The notes under the pieces: model-generated
Database searches by the model: none
The model's input: only the letters and a program-made list of their open reading frames with translations
What the model was told of the DNA's origin: nothing
Source of the DNA: Hoeflea marina
GTDB taxonomy: Bacteria > Pseudomonadota > Alphaproteobacteria > Rhizobiales > Rhizobiaceae
Direction: 5' to 3'
DNA: 64,000 nt
NCBI RefSeq assembly: GCF_003182275.1
Contig: NZ_QGTR01000006.1
Span: 62,001 to 126,000, forward strand
Translations under genes and position numbers: made by a program
Part shown: one piece after another, positions 19,357 through 26,270 of the stretch
Layout of the letters: every line of letters starts with the position of its first letter
How positions within the stretch are numbered: the first letter of the stretch is position 1

Positions 19357-20454
19357 TCAAGAGAGGCTTTGTTCGAAATCCGTGTAGTCGAACTCACGGA
19401 CCGTCCTGATGCTGCCATCCAGTTCTCGAATGGCGATTGACGGCATTCTCACGCCGTTAAACCAGTTTTTCTTGACCATCGTGTAGCCGGCGGCGTCCTG
19501 GATCGAAATCCGGTCGCCGACCTGCAGCGGGGCCTCGAAATTGAATTCGCCGAAGATGTCTCCGGCGAGGCAAGACTTGCCGCAGACCATGATGCGGTGG
19601 TCGCCTGTGCTGGGTGCGAGCTTGGCGTTCTCGCGGTAGATCAGCAGATCGAGCATGTGGGCCTCGATGGAGCTGTCGACAATGGCGAGGTGCTTGCCGT
19701 TGAACAGCGTGTCGAGCACGGTGACCTCCAGCGTCGTCGAGCGGGTGATCGAGGCTTCGCCGGGCTCGAGATAGACCTGCACGCCGTAGTCGCCGGCAAA
19801 GCGCTTGAGCCGCTCGGCGAAGCGCTCCAGCGGATAATCGTCGCCGGTGAAGTGGATGCCGCCGCCGAGACTGACCCATTCCGCCCTCTTGAGCAGCGGG
19901 CCGAACTTCTGCTCGATCTCGCCGAGCATGCGGTCGAAGAGGGCGAAATCGCCGTTCTCGCAGTTGTTGTGGATCATGAAGCCGGAGATCAGCTCCATCA
20001 CCGGTTCGACCCTGCCGATATCCCATTCGCCGAGCCGCGAGAACGGACGCGCCGGATCGGCCAGATCGAAGCTCGAGGAGGAGACGCCGGGATTGAGCCT
20101 GAGCCCGCGGGTGATGCTATCGGCCTTGCCGGCAAAGCGATCGAGCTGGCTGATGGAGTTGAAGATGATCTTGTCGGCGTGGGAGACCACCTCGTCGATC
20201 TCGTGGTCGGCATAGGCGACCGAATAGGCATGGGTCTCCTTGCCGAAGCGCTCGCGGCCGAGCCGCACCTCGTTCAGCGACGACGAGGTGGTGCCGTCCA
20301 TGTAGTCGGCCATGAAGTCGAACACGCCCCAGGTGGCGAAGCATTTGAGTGCCAGCAGGGCCTTGGCGCCGGAGAGGTCGCGAAGCCGGGCGATCCTCTC
20401 CATGTTGACGCGCAGCTTCGATTTGTCGATCAGGTAATAGGGGGTCTGGATCAC
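19357..20454 (-). CDS. nspC: Carboxynorspermidine/carboxyspermidine decarboxylase
   Basis: 365 residues, alanine-racemase-fold PLP decarboxylase. LALKCFATW near 33-41 holds the PLP lysine, EWVSLGGGIHFTGDDYP near 203-219 the phosphate loop, and CGKSCLAGD near 297 the active-site cysteine region. It decarboxylates carboxyspermidine to spermidine, the alternative to S-adenosylmethionine-based synthesis. The GTG at 20454 is chosen because it yields the conserved IQTPYYLIDKSKL start; the upstream open frame to 20538 looks noncoding. It is first gene of the two-gene spermidine operon. Confidence 0.93.
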   Translation of the reverse strand: MIQTPYYLIDKSKLRVNMERIARLRDLSGAKALLALKCFATWGVFDFMADYMDGTTSSSLNEVRLGRERFGKETHAYSVAYADHEIDEVVSHADKIIFNSISQLDRFAGKADSITRGLRLNPGVSSSSFDLADPARPFSRLGEWDIGRVEPVMELISGFMIHNNCENGDFALFDRMLGEIEQKFGPLLKRAEWVSLGGGIHFTGDDYPLERFAERLKRFAGDYGVQVYLEPGEASITRSTTLEVTVLDTLFNGKHLAIVDSSIEAHMLDLLIYRENAKLAPSTGDHRIMVCGKSCLAGDIFGEFNFEAPLQVGDRISIQDAAGYTMVKKNWFNGVRMPSIAIRELDGSIRTVREFDYTDFEQSLS

Positions 20455-21314
20455 TCTCTCGTCCGTCCTGGCTATCACGGGGAAGGGGCATTTTGCACGC
20501 GGGTGTGCGGGCCCGGCTCTGCCGGGCGTCAGGGGCAATTAGGAAAATCCCATGTCACAAGCAAGGCCGAAACGGGATTCTGGTGAAAAAGGCGGCGTTC
20601 GCGGTTGTTCCGGGGCGCGATGCCCCCTACTGGCACGCCGAAACCCCGCGCACGCCCTTGTCGACGACGGGTTGGGGCTGTTCCAGTGTTTCCGACAGGA
20701 GCCGGAATGCGGGGCGCACGCCTTAGCGTGCCCGAATGAAATGCTAGGGTGTGGCTTTTGGCTCGCTCGCGCGCCCCGCCGGCTCAAGGGCCTGCCGCCT
20801 TCCGGGCGGCGAGCTGATCCCGGATCGAGGGCCGTTCACGCATCCCCGGACGGGTCGTTTCGTACGGCGTGACCGCTGCCGAACCCGTCCTTGAGCCGGG
20901 CGCCCCTGGCCAAAGGCCGAGGCCGGAACGCCGGTGCGGGCCGGCGCTGTCTTCCGTTCCGGCGCGAAGGCCGGGGTGTCCGTCTCCTCGTTCCGTCCGG
21001 CGGCGCGGTTCGGCCCGGCGCCGCCCGGACTTCACCGCCTCCCGCCGGACCGGGATCCGTCATCCCGGCCCATCCGTGCTGGCGGAAGGCGATGTCAGTG
21101 CTGCACGGGTGGGAAAGGTGGTGAAGAAATGGGGGTGGATTTTGGCTAAAGGGTTGGCTTTGTTGGGGATGGGGTGGGGGAATGTGCACAGCCCCGAACG
21201 ATCTCGAAAGTTGCGGACAGCATCCAGGTATTGCGCAAAAAACTGAGCATCGGCAAAACGGGTTCAGCGCGGATCGGCAAAACTCGGCCAAACTGGCTTG
21301 TTCTGCGGTTTGAA
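20455..21314. other. Long intergenic spacer, nspC to AT-rich insert
   Basis: About 860 bp. The first 650 bp are very GC-rich with many overlapping spurious open frames and no recognisable gene. A perfect 7-bp hairpin CCGGGAT/ATCCCGG sits at 21050-21068 beside a CGTCATCCCGGCCC stretch (21058-21071) like the palindromic repeats elsewhere in the window. Near the right end, ATCGGCAAAAC occurs twice (21249-21259 and 21273-21283). GC falls sharply after about 21310. The nspC promoter must lie at the left end. Confidence 0.4.
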
Positions 21315-22166
21315 TCACCCCCTCTTGTTGGAAGAACAGGCAAAAATACACGGGTACCTGCCAAATTCTGCTCTGACTGCAATCTGGCTCAGATCTGTTC
21401 CCAATAAATCGTCTAAAACAGGGTCTCTCTCAATTTCAAAGCTTCGCCCCAACGCGTCAATTAGCAATCCCCTCCAATTATCACATACTAATGATCTTGA
21501 TGTAAGGAGATTTAAAGCATTGGAAAGGTTAGAACTTTCTATAATTGTGCGATTTGTTCCTCTTCTTCCTTTTAAAGACGTACTTTTTATGTATAGGTCT
21601 CGCTCAAAATTGTCATCAAGCCAACAAAATCGTAGAAATGCTAAATTATTATTCAATTCTGTAATTCTTATTCCCGCCTGCATCCATGGAACCCGACACT
21701 CGCGTGATAACAAATCGCAGAATTCCAACCAATCGTTCGTATTCTTGGGATAATTTTTCGACAAGCATGTAGAGATATAGTCATCAGATATTAATAGATT
21801 TCTTGCAAATCGGTCGCAAAGCTCCTCGATTTTCCAGTGATTAAAGTGTTTTAGATTCTCTGGAAATTGGGCTTCCTCAATCGCCACGTGAGCAAGTTCG
21901 TGGGCAATACAAAACCGCTCATATGAACGAATCGGCACCATCGGAAGCGAAATACTGTATCTGAATTTTCCTTCTCGCGGGCGAGAGAGCTTGGCAGCTA
22001 GTCTCGGAATTTCCGGGCCCTTTTTGATGGATATTCGGTTGGTTGCGCAATATTCACTCAAAAAAAACAACGGAGAGTCGTCATTGCTTCTAAGCTTAGT
22101 CGCCATCGCGACTATTTTCGCCTCGAAATGTTGAAATTCAAGTGCTGCTTGCACACTGAGCCTCAC
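21315..22166 (-). CDS. ImmA/IrrE-family metallo-endopeptidase
   Basis: 283 residues. HELAH at 89-93 is the zinc-protease HExxH motif, and EELCDRFARNLLI at 114-126 matches the ImmA/IrrE helix carrying the third zinc ligand (Glu114 or Glu115). Family members cleave repressors or, in IrrE, act in stress responses. The last about 150 residues are not recognised. A GTG at 22166 lies 2 bases after the stop of the upstream HD gene; an ATG at 22106 (residue 21) would still keep the motif. The gene is AT-rich with A/T-ending codons, unlike its surroundings, indicating transfer together with the HD gene. Confidence 0.88.
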   Translation of the reverse strand: MRLSVQAALEFQHFEAKIVAMATKLRSNDDSPLFFLSEYCATNRISIKKGPEIPRLAAKLSRPREGKFRYSISLPMVPIRSYERFCIAHELAHVAIEEAQFPENLKHFNHWKIEELCDRFARNLLISDDYISTCLSKNYPKNTNDWLEFCDLLSRECRVPWMQAGIRITELNNNLAFLRFCWLDDNFERDLYIKSTSLKGRRGTNRTIIESSNLSNALNLLTSRSLVCDNWRGLLIDALGRSFEIERDPVLDDLLGTDLSQIAVRAEFGRYPCIFACSSNKRG

Positions 22167-22168
22167 AG

Positions 22169-24073
22169 TTATTTTTCGCCGTCGCGGCGGAAGAAATTTC
22201 TTAAACAGAGAACTCCATTGGGATAACGGGGCTCTGGTCCGACATCGGCGATCAGACGGGCGGCTAGTTCCTCATCATCAGCGTTGTCAACGAATTTTAT
22301 ATTGTTGTCTCCCAGCTTGGCCTTGGCATCCACAAAATCGCGAGCTAAGGAACGGCAGCGCTCAGACACATGCGCGGGCGGGCTTCCAACGGAGGTGACA
22401 ACCTCTTTAATAAATCTATCTATTCTTCGCAAATCTTTAGGATCCATGTTCTCCTTGACATCAAGGTCAATAAAGAATTGAATTTTCCAAAGTCCTGAAA
22501 ACCGTTTTATCTGCGCGGACAAATGCCCCCCTGTTAGCGAATCTTTAGTGCTCATTTTATTCTTGCCAGATTCATATTCGCTAAATCTTGCGACCTCCCC
22601 ATCTACTTCAATGTTTACGTCCGCTATCTTTGGCTTAACTTCCGTGCAATATATTGAAATGCTTCCAGCAGGCAATTCAAAATCCAACTCAATATCGCGC
22701 GCTACCGTGTAGCGGTTAATTGAAGATTTTTTTGATCCATGCACACCGAACCGTTCTGCCAATCCGGCTTTTTTCGCATCGAGCAGTTTTCGGGATTCGT
22801 AGCTCACAAATTCTTTCTGAAGGCGTCTATTCTTTAATTTATGCAAAATAGATTTTGCTGTGATTTTTGAACGTGTTTCGTAATACTCATCTATATTATT
22901 TTGCGTTGGCGAACATTCATCCAAAGCGTAATCTAACAGCTGATCATCGCTTAAGTCGATGACGCGCTCTAGTAGTTTCTCGCTGGAGTCGGTGCCCCAG
23001 AGCTCAAAAAATGCCCTACCCAGCATGGATGCAGCTGCTGCTTTAGTTCGATGAAAAAGAACTGTTTCAGCTAGCTCGTACCTCCATTCAAGTAAACCAA
23101 GTATAGCTGTTACTCCGTCTGTTCGCGTTCTTCCCGTACTTGAAGTCAGACGGATAACAAACTCATCATAGCAGCTTGGGTTGCTATCGCCCAATGCATG
23201 GCTGGAATCGGGGCCGCGGGCGATTTCCATGTATTGATACAGTCGGTCTTCGACTGTTCGTACACGCCCAATATGGTACCAGTCTCGATAAATATAATCT
23301 AGAAGATCTGCGCATATTGTATTTCCAACAATATTTTGGCAGACACGAAACCTTATATGATCTGATGATGCCAGTGCCTCATAATTTTTTTCATACTTAT
23401 CTTTATCTTTGGGATGTTTTCGTATTATAAGTGTAATGAGAAGCGAGGGGGTCATGCCCTTTTTCTTGAGCGGTGGTGGCAGAAAATTCGAATACATGTC
23501 GTCAATTAATTTTCGTAGCGAAATTGATTCGCCGCCAGGCCAATCTGTTCGATCCAAGATGAAATCGATGCGAGGGTGACCATCGTGTATGTCTAATAGA
23601 TTTAATTCATCTTCCAATGTATGTCCGGCTGCCACATGCCCAATATCGTGTAATAAGGCGCTTAGGCGAATAAATCTGATTTCCTGTAAACTTAAAGCTG
23701 GTGGATGGTTTCTCCCAGGATGTCTTACGGCTCTTCTAATCATATTTTCTTTGACTGAGCGGCAAATTTTGTCCGCCACCGCAGTTGATCCCAGCACATG
23801 CTCAATTCTTTTGTGAGTTGCGCCGCGGTATACGAGATGGGCTTGGCCAAGTTGATTTATTTTGCTTAACCGTTGGAACGCGGGATGATTTATGATTGCG
23901 AGTTCTTCGGGGTAGAACTGGAAAAAACCGGTAACCGGCAAGTAGAACTCTTGCAATTCGCCTTCACCACGAACCTCGTCGTTCGGCGAGGTGGTACTGC
24001 CTTCAAGCAGCGCTAATTCAGTAGCTGCCTGTTCGCTTTTCTGTCCATTCTCAAAAAAAGGGAGCTCTGCCAT
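22169..24073 (-). CDS. SAMHD1/dGTPase-like HD-domain phosphohydrolase
   Basis: 634 residues. AFQRLSKINQLGQAHLVYRG followed by ATHKRIEH (85-92), LHDIGH (141-146) and ADLLDYIYRDWYHIG (255-269) give His87, His142, Asp143 and Asp256, the four metal ligands of SAMHD1/dGTPase enzymes; His146 and His151 match the catalytic histidines, Tyr260 and Asp264 the nucleotide contacts. It may hydrolyse dNTPs or another nucleotide. The C-terminal about 300 residues are not recognised. Start 24073 is fixed by AAGGAGGAGG 7 bases upstream; a longer frame to 24121 has no such site. AT-rich; cotranscribed with the ImmA-like gene. A broader HD hydrolase role is possible. Confidence 0.86.
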   Translation of the reverse strand: MAELPFFENGQKSEQAATELALLEGSTTSPNDEVRGEGELQEFYLPVTGFFQFYPEELAIINHPAFQRLSKINQLGQAHLVYRGATHKRIEHVLGSTAVADKICRSVKENMIRRAVRHPGRNHPPALSLQEIRFIRLSALLHDIGHVAAGHTLEDELNLLDIHDGHPRIDFILDRTDWPGGESISLRKLIDDMYSNFLPPPLKKKGMTPSLLITLIIRKHPKDKDKYEKNYEALASSDHIRFRVCQNIVGNTICADLLDYIYRDWYHIGRVRTVEDRLYQYMEIARGPDSSHALGDSNPSCYDEFVIRLTSSTGRTRTDGVTAILGLLEWRYELAETVLFHRTKAAAASMLGRAFFELWGTDSSEKLLERVIDLSDDQLLDYALDECSPTQNNIDEYYETRSKITAKSILHKLKNRRLQKEFVSYESRKLLDAKKAGLAERFGVHGSKKSSINRYTVARDIELDFELPAGSISIYCTEVKPKIADVNIEVDGEVARFSEYESGKNKMSTKDSLTGGHLSAQIKRFSGLWKIQFFIDLDVKENMDPKDLRRIDRFIKEVVTSVGSPPAHVSERCRSLARDFVDAKAKLGDNNIKFVDNADDEELAARLIADVGPEPRYPNGVLCLRNFFRRDGEK

Positions 24074-24091
24074 TAAAGTACCTCCTCCTTC

Positions 24092-24121
24092 ATTATATCC
24101 GATTGAAGAGCTCTCGTCCAA
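24092..24121 (-). promoter_or_regulatory. Candidate promoter of the HD + ImmA operon
   Basis: On the minus strand TTGGAC (24116-24121), an 18-bp spacer and a perfect TATAAT (24092-24097). The Shine-Dalgarno AAGGAGGAGG (24081-24090) follows at once, so transcripts would have a very short leader beginning near the ribosome site. Confidence 0.5.
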
Positions 24122-24260
24122 TAAGTTTCAAGGGGCGTGTCTTATCGTGGAAACCAAATGGCAGAAAGACATCGGTTCCCGTCTCAACGATGTAACTGTA
24201 TTTACGTCGCTTACCGTCGTTGATCTGTGTTTTCGTGTTCACCGCCCACGCCCCACCCCC

Positions 24261-24289
24261 TTGCCATATTTCCCCGTCCGCTGTATCCA
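24261..24289 (+). promoter_or_regulatory. Candidate leuL/leuA promoter
   Basis: TTGCCA (24261-24266), a 17-bp spacer and TATCCA (24284-24289), then 6 bases to the leader ATG at 24296. The predicted transcription start is the A of that ATG. The spacing copies that of the trpL promoter at 8609-8637. No Shine-Dalgarno precedes the leader ORF, which fits a leaderless mRNA. Confidence 0.5.
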
Positions 24290-24295
24290 GCTGCC

Positions 24296-24418
24296 ATGAC
24301 CAAGACCTCGCGCCCCTCCGAGACCTCATTCGCCCGCTTTTCGGCGGCGGTGGTTTCGCATGCGCGTCTTGGCGGCCTGCTGCTTCTTTCGCTTAGTGGC
24401 GATCGCCGGGCTCGTTGA
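24296..24418 (+). CDS. leuL: Leucine leader peptide (leuL-like)
   Basis: A 40-residue ORF ending 139 bp before leuA. It contains LGGLLLLSLSG: four tandem Leu codons at 24377-24388 and two more nearby. Such runs upstream of an amino-acid biosynthetic gene mark ribosome-mediated attenuation, here by charged tRNA-Leu. No SD is present; the likely promoter puts +1 at the ATG. Assignment rests on position, Leu run and flanking alternative hairpins, not on homology. Confidence 0.7.
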   Translation: MTKTSRPSETSFARFSAAVVSHARLGGLLLLSLSGDRRAR

Positions 24419-24456
24419 GGAGCGTCCGGCGGTCGACGCGCCGGCGGTGCAGCTCC
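24400..24456 (+). promoter_or_regulatory. Candidate leu attenuator with alternative hairpins
   Basis: CGATCGCCGG (24400-24409) can pair with CCGGCGGTCG (24426-24435), one G-U pair. This excludes a second hairpin in which GGAGC (24419-24423) pairs with GCTCC (24452-24456) and CCGGCG (24426-24431) with CGCCGG (24439-24444). A ribosome stalled on the Leu codons would favour the first. No T-run follows the second, so termination might need Rho or a different mechanism. Confidence 0.4.
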
Positions 24457-24557
24457 TTGCGAACTTCCACAATTTCTTCCATTGAGAAATGACGGCCCGG
24501 ACCGGGACTGCGCCTGACGCGCGTCCGCCGGGGAGGGCCCCAGAGCGAGAGACGATC

Positions 24558-26270
24558 ATGACAGCACATTCCGCAAGCGGCCAGAAGGGCATGCCCGGCG
24601 CCGCCTCGAAGTACCAGCCTTACCCGGCCATCAACATTCCCGACCGAACCTGGCCCTCCAAGCAGATCGACAAGGCACCGATCTGGTGCTCGGTCGACCT
24701 GCGCGACGGCAACCAGTCGCTGATCAACCCGATGGGCCATGACCGCAAGGCGCGGATGTTCCAGCTGCTGCTCGACATGGGCTTCAAGGAAATCGAGATC
24801 GGCTTCCCGTCGGCCTCGCAGACCGATTTCGACTTTGCCCGCTGGTGCATCGAGGAGGGCAATGTGCCAGCCGACGTGTCGCTGCAGGTGCTGGTGCAGT
24901 GCCGGCCTGAGCTGATCACCCGCACCTTCGAGGCGCTTGAAGGCGCCAACCGGCCGATCGTGCATTTCTACAATTCGACATCCGAATTGCAGCGCCGCGT
25001 GGTGTTCGACAAGGATGTGGCCGGCATCAAGCAGATCGCCATCGATGCGGCGAAGATGATCAAGGACATGGCCGAGAAGGCCGGCGGCGATTTCCGCTTC
25101 GAGTATTCGCCGGAGAGTTTCACCGGCACAGAGCTGGAAGTGGCGCTGGAAATCTCCAATGCCGTCATCGAGATCATTCAACCGACGCCGGACAACAAGC
25201 TGATCCTCAATCTGCCCTCGACGGTGGAAATGGCGACGCCCAACATCTATGCCGACCAGATCGAATGGATGTGCCGAAATATCGACAACCGCGAGAACGT
25301 CATCGTCTCGCTGCACCCGCACAACGACCGCGGCACCGGCATCGCCGCCACCGAACTGGGCCTGATGGCCGGCGCCGACCGGGTCGAGGGCACCCTGTTC
25401 GGCAATGGCGAGCGCACCGGCAATGTCGACGTTGTTGCGCTGGCGCTCAACATGTTCACGCAAGGCGTCGATCCGAAGCTCGATTGTTCGGATATCGAGC
25501 GCATCAAGGCAGTGTTCGAGTATTCCAACGAGATGACCATCCCCGAGCGCCACCCCTATGTCGGCGAACTGGTCTACACCGCGTTTTCGGGATCACACCA
25601 GGACGCCATCAACAAGGGCATGAAGGCGATCCGCCAGGCCAACAAGAGCCTGTGGGAAGTGCCCTATCTGCCGATCGACCCGCAGGACGTCGGCCGCAGC
25701 TACGAGGCGATCATCCGCATCAATTCGCAGTCGGGCAAGGGCGGCATCGCCTACATCATGCAGGAGGATTACGGCCTCACCCTGCCGCGCGCGCTGCAGG
25801 TGGAGTTCCGCGGCGACATCCAGCGCATCACCGACGAAGGCGGCAAGGAACTGCCGTCGAAGGCGATCCACGACCGCTTCATGCAGCTCTATGTCGAGCA
25901 GCCCGGCGCGAGGCTGAAATTCGTCGACCATCACACCCACACCGATCCGGCCAACAAGGCGATCCGCATCGTTTCGGCCGAGATCACCGACGGTGGCGAG
26001 ACCAGGCGCATCGAAGGCCGCGGCACGGGCCCGATCGACGGCTTCGTCAATGCGCTGTCTACCTATCTCGGCATCGAGCTGACGGTGGCCAACTATTCCG
26101 AGCACTCGATGCAGCACGGCTCCAACGCGGCCGCGATCAGCTACATGGAAATGGAGACGCCGGCCGGCAAGCTTTTCGGCGCCGGCATAGACACCAACAT
26201 CGTCGCCGCCTCGCTGGCTGCGGTGGTTTCCGCCGCCAACCGTGCGCTCGACGCGCAAGGCGCGGCCTGA
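24558..26270 (+). CDS. leuA: 2-isopropylmalate synthase (long LeuA type)
   Basis: First committed step of leucine synthesis: acetyl-CoA plus 2-oxoisovalerate to 2-isopropylmalate. 570 residues, the long form found in actinobacteria and rhizobia. APIWCSVDLRDGNQSL near 44-59 is the family signature with the metal Asp, SLHPHNDRGTG near 252-262 holds the HxH metal ligands, and GNGERTGNVD near 292 completes the TIM barrel. The regulatory LeuA dimer domain follows from about 440, implying leucine feedback inhibition. ATG 24558 has GAGAGA upstream; the extra frame to 24489 is not conserved-looking. A leucine leader peptide stands upstream. Confidence 0.96.
   Translation: MTAHSASGQKGMPGAASKYQPYPAINIPDRTWPSKQIDKAPIWCSVDLRDGNQSLINPMGHDRKARMFQLLLDMGFKEIEIGFPSASQTDFDFARWCIEEGNVPADVSLQVLVQCRPELITRTFEALEGANRPIVHFYNSTSELQRRVVFDKDVAGIKQIAIDAAKMIKDMAEKAGGDFRFEYSPESFTGTELEVALEISNAVIEIIQPTPDNKLILNLPSTVEMATPNIYADQIEWMCRNIDNRENVIVSLHPHNDRGTGIAATELGLMAGADRVEGTLFGNGERTGNVDVVALALNMFTQGVDPKLDCSDIERIKAVFEYSNEMTIPERHPYVGELVYTAFSGSHQDAINKGMKAIRQANKSLWEVPYLPIDPQDVGRSYEAIIRINSQSGKGGIAYIMQEDYGLTLPRALQVEFRGDIQRITDEGGKELPSKAIHDRFMQLYVEQPGARLKFVDHHTHTDPANKAIRIVSAEITDGGETRRIEGRGTGPIDGFVNALSTYLGIELTVANYSEHSMQHGSNAAAISYMEMETPAGKLFGAGIDTNIVAASLAAVVSAANRALDAQGAA

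What the first reader, a model, noticed from the sequence alone, without database searches (positions are those of the whole stretch)
21315..24073. AT-rich two-gene HD phosphohydrolase + ImmA/IrrE protease module: candidate undescribed defence or nucleotide-control system
The sequence shows an abrupt AT-rich block in GC-rich core DNA, with two minus-strand genes 2 bp apart. The first encodes a SAMHD1/dGTPase-like HD enzyme, the second an ImmA/IrrE-type metalloprotease. Established: dNTP-hydrolysing HD enzymes can restrict phage, and ImmA/IrrE proteases cleave regulators on stress signals. Inference: the pair may be a defence module in which one partner senses or licenses the other. I know of no named system with this exact pair, but could not search.
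Basis: partly seen in the sequence, partly recalled or inferred. Interest (0 to 1): 0.85.

Follow-up and report, generated by a model that had tools for sequence, protein, structure and literature searches.

The report
Nucleotide-cutting enzyme paired with protease
A rare two-gene cassette pairs a relative of the human antiviral enzyme SAMHD1 with a stress-type protease, and it sits where several sister species keep other anti-virus genes, so it may be an undescribed bacterial immune system, though nothing has been tested in the laboratory.

Summary
An AT-rich block (GC 0.44 against 0.66) holds two intact minus-strand genes 2 bp apart: a SAMHD1/EF1143-like HD phosphohydrolase (634 aa) and an IrrE/CapP-like metalloprotease (283 aa).

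The pair recurs. I found it in a Hyphomicrobiales MAG (HD 39% identical, protease 22-28%, genes overlapping 4 bp) and, more diverged, on a phage contig. The three paired HD proteins form one clade (support 100/99). None of 20 other HD loci examined has such a protease in the flank held. All three share GNTICADLLDY, with Leu where SAMHD1 and 18 of 18 scored unpaired relatives have Lys or Arg.

The insertion site, between nspC and leuA, is variable. Of 9 sister loci read, 5 carry defence-type cargo: PD-Lambda-5_A-like, AbiU/AIPR, AAA_21, DUF4238 or Phd/PIN. This makes defence the best reading.

Best mechanism, inferred and untested: the protease senses ssDNA or replication stress and switches the HD enzyme by cleavage; the HD enzyme then depletes deoxynucleotides. 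Closest precedents are Clover (effector logic) and PprI-DdrO or CapP-CapH (protease). I found no named system with this pair, but the literature search was limited. I rate it a new variant of a known kind.

The parts
22169..24073 (-). HD phosphohydrolase of the SAMHD1/EF1143 kind, 634 aa; R89, H92, H142-D143, H146, H151-x-x-E154, D256, Y260, D264 and R331 present; Leu257 at the place of Lys312 of SAMHD1
   Evidence: ORF; PDB sequence matches; fold matches to SAMHD1 and 3irh from a modest model; residue table
21315..22166 (-). ImmA/IrrE-type (Peptidase_M78) metalloprotease, 283 aa, GTG start, HELAH motif and E114; no HTH family match
   Evidence: ORF; Pfam M78 over cut-off; capP best in PADLOC; profile matches to PprI/IrrE and CapP structures; residue table
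22670..23041 (-). stretch coding HD residues 345-468, between the HD core and the conserved C-terminal part; 123, 190 and 134 aa in the three copies; proposed (inferred) cleavage region
   Evidence: alignment A3 and lengths; no cleavage evidence
20603..24253 (.). variable interval between the nspC side and the leuA side, replaced by other cargo in sister species
   Evidence: blastn against 9 sister loci

Best explanation
A compact, horizontally moving anti-phage module. The HD protein is a SAMHD1-type nucleotide hydrolase kept low or off in healthy cells. The IrrE/CapP-like protease senses infection, most likely single-stranded DNA or another product of phage replication, and cleaves its operon partner in the variable region between the HD core and the C-terminal part. 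That switches the hydrolase on; deoxynucleotides fall and phage DNA synthesis stops. Shown here: the two intact active-site signatures, the tight gene coupling, the recurrence and the variable, often defence-type insertion site. Inferred: phage defence, the ssDNA trigger, cleavage of the partner, the direction of control, and dNTP as substrate.
For: Pair found in three contexts (window; MAG OFTM97; phage contig). Paired HD proteins form one clade, 100/99, in a tree of 15 rows; 0 of 20 other HD loci examined have a hit to the protease profile in the flank held. M78 matches are few: 3 in this genome and 1 in the MAG's genome, that one being the partner. Active-site residues kept in 3 of 3 for both proteins. 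The same site holds other defence-type genes in 5 of 9 sister loci read. Precedents: Clover dGTPase CloA with a regulating partner (abstract and section 5); PprI activated by ssDNA, CapP likewise as told in that paper (passages).
Against: No experiment. The pair is very rare: this genome plus 1 of 396 other genomes of the order, 0 of 60 relatives. The protease's last third could not be modelled (pLDDT mostly under 40), so a GAF-like sensor is not shown. The IrrE, ImmA and CapP proteases described in the passages read cut HTH repressors, not enzymes. Lys312 to Leu in all three HD proteins could mean that dNTPs are not the substrate. 4 of 9 sister loci carry no defence-type gene that I could name (2 insertion sequences, RsgA, 1 nothing of note).
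Confidence: 0.42

Rival explanations
1. Toxin-antitoxin logic: the HD enzyme is a toxic nucleotide hydrolase and the protease holds it in check by degrading it; loss or phage inhibition of the protease frees the toxin.
For: Two abutting or overlapping genes, also on a phage; COG2856 proteases are linked to toxin-antitoxin operons (passages of PMC2701414); a Phd/PIN pair sits at the same site in one relative; weak matches of the proteases to an spr1629-type antitoxin model.
Against: In those operons the protease is fused to or beside an HTH protein; none is seen here. No toxicity data.
Confidence: 0.2
2. The protease is the effector and the HD enzyme its nucleotide-sensing brake or trigger: infection changes a nucleotide, the HD protein releases the protease, and the protease cuts an essential host or phage protein (Lit-like suicide).
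For: No HTH substrate is encoded; a weak match to the phage exclusion protease Lit (E 0.002, far under its cut-off); phosphate-site change Lys/Arg to Leu in the HD clade.
Against: The Lit match is weak and local to the HExxH region; the HD catalytic residues are all kept, which suggests catalysis matters.
Confidence: 0.15
3. Not defence: a nucleotide-metabolism or stress-repair gene pair moved by phages and insertion sequences.
For: dNTPases also serve the host (recalled; a Caulobacter title in the listing); the MAG copy lies among metabolic genes; 4 of 9 sister loci at the site carry no defence-type gene.
Against: Patchy distribution, foreign base composition, phage carriage and defence-type cargo at the same site in 5 of 9 sister loci.
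Confidence: 0.16
4. Two unrelated genes that happen to be neighbours.
For: M78 and HD genes are each common families (recalled).
Against: Pair in 3 of 3 members of the HD clade in three contexts; 3 and 1 M78 matches in the two genomes.
Confidence: 0.02

Closest known systems
Clover (CloA dGTPase + CloB nucleotidyltransferase)
   Same: HD-family deoxynucleotide hydrolase encoded with one regulating partner; effector lowers the dNTP pool (PMC12265719, abstract and section 5)
   Different: The partner here is a metalloprotease, not a nucleotidyltransferase; the HD protein scores far under the dGTPase model (TIGR01353, 22.3 bits against a cut-off of 152) and finds SAMHD1-type structures first
PprI/IrrE-DdrO and CapP-CapH (M78 protease circuits)
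   Same: Protease related by profile to PprI and CapP structures, HExxH kept; capP is the best PADLOC hit of all three copies
   Different: Their substrate is an HTH repressor; here the partner is an HD enzyme and no HTH gene is present
SAMHD1 and bacterial EF1143-type HD dNTPases
   Same: Fold and metal-site residues
   Different: Leu at the Lys312 place in the three paired proteins; a longer, variable region before the C-terminal part; a protease partner
PD-Lambda-2 (HigB, HigA fused to an ImmA/IrrE-type peptidase, third gene)
   Same: A defence operon that contains this kind of peptidase (PMC9519451, passages)
   Different: Three genes, an HTH fused to the peptidase, no HD enzyme

Membership tests
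SAMHD1-type HD phosphohydrolases | HD metal site (H..HD..D) and catalytic His | tested here: met
   H92, H142, D143, D256, H151 in 3 of 3; SAMHD1 numbering assigned by alignment and recall
SAMHD1-type HD phosphohydrolases | phosphate-binding set R164, H215, H233, K312, Y315, R366 | tested here: inconclusive
   Places of R164, H215, Y315, R366 kept in 3 of 3; H233 place kept in 2 of 3; K312 place is Leu in 3 of 3 (list of contacts from passages)
SAMHD1-type HD phosphohydrolases | dNTP triphosphohydrolase activity | not testable with these tools
   needs enzyme assay
M78 (ImmA/IrrE) metalloproteases | HExxH plus downstream Glu, Pfam M78 over cut-off | tested here: met
   3 of 3
CapP-CapH / IrrE-DdrO / ImmA-ImmR circuits | HTH repressor substrate beside or fused | tested here: not met
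   No third gene seen in the block and only an M78 match for the protease; likewise by ORF list in MAG and phage copies
PprI/CapP architecture | C-terminal GAF-like domain | tested here: inconclusive
   Right length, but residues 174-283 modelled at pLDDT under 50
Clover | CloB-type nucleotidyltransferase partner | tested here: not met
   Partner is an M78 protease
Anti-phage defence systems | Location with other defence genes | tested here: met
   Shared insertion site: 5 of 9 sister loci read, 3 of them with strong PADLOC hits; the rest of this genome not surveyed
Anti-phage defence systems | Reduces phage plating | not testable with these tools
   needs phage challenge
Named defence systems of PADLOC 2023 | Strong match of both proteins to one system | tested here: not met
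   Only partial matches: capP 1.3e-7 and dGTPase 1.5e-5 for the window pair;

The most novel reading that the evidence does not exclude
A new immune logic in which a protease, licensed by phage-made ssDNA or by a nucleotide, and an HD hydrolase with a rebuilt phosphate site (Leu for Lys/Arg, a mark of this clade) control each other; the hydrolase acts on a nucleotide other than the four dNTPs, perhaps a signal that holds the protease off. It would join IrrE-type proteolysis to SAMHD1-type nucleotide control in one immune system, a combination I have not met in print.
Probability: 0.2. Interest if true: 0.85.

Novelty: new variant of a known kind. Interest (0 to 1): 0.62.

Why it matters
dNTP-depleting immunity is shared by animals (SAMHD1) and bacteria (dGTPase, Clover), and how such dangerous enzymes are kept off until infection is an open question. 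A proteolytic switch would be a new answer, and a two-gene cassette is easy to test. The site between nspC and leuA is also a place to look for further undescribed systems in this genus.

Tried and rejected
Searches that gave nothing: window and MAG HD proteins in viral contigs as single sequences; protease profile in viral contigs; phage HD and phage protease in viral contigs, each only itself; window protease in plasmids and in 297 genomes of the order, own only (the MAG's protease is too diverged to show); Rfam at 20000-25000. The one genome-contig scan used patterns from two sequences and returned only the MAG, so relatives as distant as the phage copy would have been missed; rarity is an upper estimate.

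Rejected: a transposon with terminal repeats; the repeats found in 20500-24600 are short or imperfect. Rejected: a hidden HTH partner; no credible third ORF. Promoter-like sites are at chance (4 found, 4.1 expected) and terminator-like ones near it (6 found, 4.4 expected). The protease model is not usable beyond residue 173, and its Foldseek search gave no match at E 0.001 or better (best 3dti, 0.007).

Rows dropped from counts: Lys/Arg count is 18 of 18 scored out of 20 unpaired HD loci; L007 did not match the motif pattern and L041 was not scored. The tree used 12 of the 20 unpaired rows: L004, L005, L006, L007, L011 and L012 failed the selecting pattern, L041 was not entered, L044 was removed. 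Several of the 20 are near copies (L003/L044, L032-L034, L040/L041, L011/L012). Loci L009-L012 and L030-L035 are only 2.3-3.7 kb, so absence of a protease there covers about 0.3-1.5 kb. Further distant HD hits (for example most of the 43 records) were not examined for neighbours. For PADLOC and Pfam I chose 8 and 10 proteins from the sister-locus ORF lists, not every ORF.

Literature limits: the search cannot take a slash, so 'ImmA/IrrE' may be missed (searches gave no hit for 'ImmA IrrE'); 'irre' also matches other words; of the papers listed I read only the parts named in the report; Nicastro et al. 2023, cited in the Clover paper, is not held.

Full report
What is there. The block 21315-24073 is AT-rich (GC 0.439) in DNA of GC 0.66; none of 220 overlapping windows of that size outside falls below 0.618. 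It holds two minus-strand genes 2 bp apart. Left of it lie nspC (TIGR01047, 394.5 bits, just under its cut-off of 409) and a gene that best matches carboxynorspermidine synthase (well under cut-off); right of it lies a 2-isopropylmalate synthase gene, here called leuA.

The HD protein. phmmer and a three-sequence profile find SAMHD1, 9mr6, 2o6i (with 3irh, 4lrl) and 2hek in the PDB. An AlphaFold2 model from six sequences is of modest quality (mean pLDDT 52, pTM 0.54). Of the 50 Foldseek rows shown, rank 1 is a 'model of Cullin4' with rmsd 16, which I disregard; the others are SAMHD1 chains plus 3irh (Enterococcus HD protein) and 2q14, with TM-scores of about 0.4 by query length. Metal-site and catalytic residues are kept in 3 of 3 paired proteins. 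SAMHD1 numbers are assigned by alignment and recall; the HMMER alignment shows DKWDY of SAMHD1 against DLLDY directly. In SAMHD1 the substrate phosphates touch R164, H215, H233, K312, Y315 and R366 (PMC11074143, passages). The K312 place is Leu in 3 of 3 paired proteins and Lys or Arg in 18 of 18 scored unpaired relatives; the H233 place is missing in the phage copy's alignment. This is the clearest oddity of the clade and a reason to doubt plain dNTPase activity.

The protease. Pfam M78 is over cut-off. The best PADLOC hit of all three copies is capP (1.3e-7, 3.5e-11, 8.8e-24). By profile the nearest solved structures are PprI/IrrE (8slm 1e-5, 3dte 1.4e-5) and CapP (7t5t 0.008). HExxH and E114 are kept in 3 of 3. 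PprI has a peptidase domain, a helix-turn-helix part and a GAF-like domain and is activated by ssDNA (PMC10904395, passages). The window protein has a similar length and helices where the first two would lie; the last third could not be modelled.

Does the pair recur? In the MAG OFTM97 (JAJFHE010000053.1, Hyphomicrobiales; L008, L013) the HD gene (684 aa) overlaps a 320-aa M78 gene by 4 bp, in metabolic surroundings by eye and again AT-rich (0.451 against about 0.61). HD identity to the window copy is 39% overall; the proteases are 22-28% identical depending on the alignment, and BLAST aligns them significantly only around HExxH. On viral contig IMGVR_UViG_3300037184_000560 (L037) a 711-aa HD gene and an M78 gene follow each other on one strand, against terminase and primase genes on the other; its terminase is 40-42% identical to those of the 8 best-listed phages, Roseobacter phages among them (749 records in all). 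The window and phage HD proteins align at 30% over 419 columns, the proteases at 25% over 139.

Is it more than chance? Paired HD proteins form one clade, 100/99 (15 rows, 451 columns; L037 has a long branch). With a profile of the three proteases, 0 of 20 other HD loci examined gave a hit in the flank held; some of the 20 are near copies and ten have short flanks. This genome has 3 M78 matches and the MAG genome 1, its partner. With about 5,000 genes per genome (my assumption), chance adjacency in both comes to about 5 in 10 million.

How rare is it? At the clade's level of similarity there is no other hit in 60 relatives or in 384 other genomes of the class (four weak hits elsewhere), and 1 hit, the MAG, in 396 other genomes of the order. 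In the phylum sample of 398 genomes, 6 others gave only distant HD hits. Distant HD hits on plasmids and phages whose neighbours I examined lack the protease.

The insertion site. Of 12 other genomes of the genus searched, 11 have the leuA stretch; I read 9 of these 11. In 5 of 9 (L046, L047, L048, L049, L052) both flanks are kept at 83-88% identity, with 2.9-4.4 kb of unrelated DNA between. Their cargo: a PD-Lambda-5_A-like gene (9.6e-78) with a second gene; an AbiU/AIPR gene (7.4e-30); a DUF4238 gene with an IS66 transposase; an integrase-core (IS481-like) transposase; an IS110-type transposase. In the other 4 the left flank differs: an AAA_21 ATPase (L053), a Phd/PIN pair (L054), RsgA (L050), nothing of note (L051). 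Strong PADLOC hits: 3 of 9; with DUF4238 and Phd/PIN, 5 of 9. The cargo is AT-rich (GC 0.41-0.49) in 4 of 9 (L046, L047, L049, L053); the Phd/PIN pair and the transposases are not. There is no clean empty site.

Mechanism. dNTP-depleting HD enzymes with a partner are established defence (Clover, PMC12265719, abstract and section 5). ssDNA-activated M78 proteases are established regulators. Together they give the best explanation: infection-licensed cleavage of the hydrolase, perhaps in its variable region of 123-190 aa. That step is inference. The M78 proteases in the passages read cut HTH proteins, and none is encoded here, so the substrate should be new: the HD protein, a host protein or a phage protein. 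The rivals are toxin-antitoxin logic, a protease effector, and a non-defence role.

Novelty. PADLOC 2023 gives only partial matches. Nine paper searches (listings only) showed no title or abstract start that describes such a pair; several of them aimed at the neighbours Clover and CapP, and the slash limits them. Nicastro 2023 is not held, so prior mention cannot be excluded. The parts are known and the combination looks new: new variant of a known kind.

Noticed in passing
window 20603-24253; L046, L047, L049, L053, L054: Variable site between nspC and leuA in this genus, with defence-type cargo in 5 of 9 sister loci read and insertion sequences in others; a place to mine for new systems.
   Followed up: partly
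L004 5514-8385, L005 5442-8331, L006 5421-7161, L007 5441-8340: On four plasmids of different genera a SAMHD1-like HD gene directly follows (2-25 bp) a 134-141 aa gene with no Pfam match: perhaps a second, distinct two-gene HD module.
   Followed up: no
L039 5956-7841, L040 5397-7416: Viral-contig HD genes beside a 170-190 aa gene that by eye recalls the DUF4065/Panacea antitoxin fold; Pfam gave no hit at 0.1.
   Followed up: no
L049 5468-6175: DUF4238 gene of GC 0.43 beside an IS66 transposase at the same site; no PADLOC 2023 hit, a candidate for testing.
   Followed up: no
L037 5947-9127: Phage contig carries the pair between terminase and primase genes on the opposite strand: phage-borne cargo that may exclude rival phages.
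   Followed up: partly
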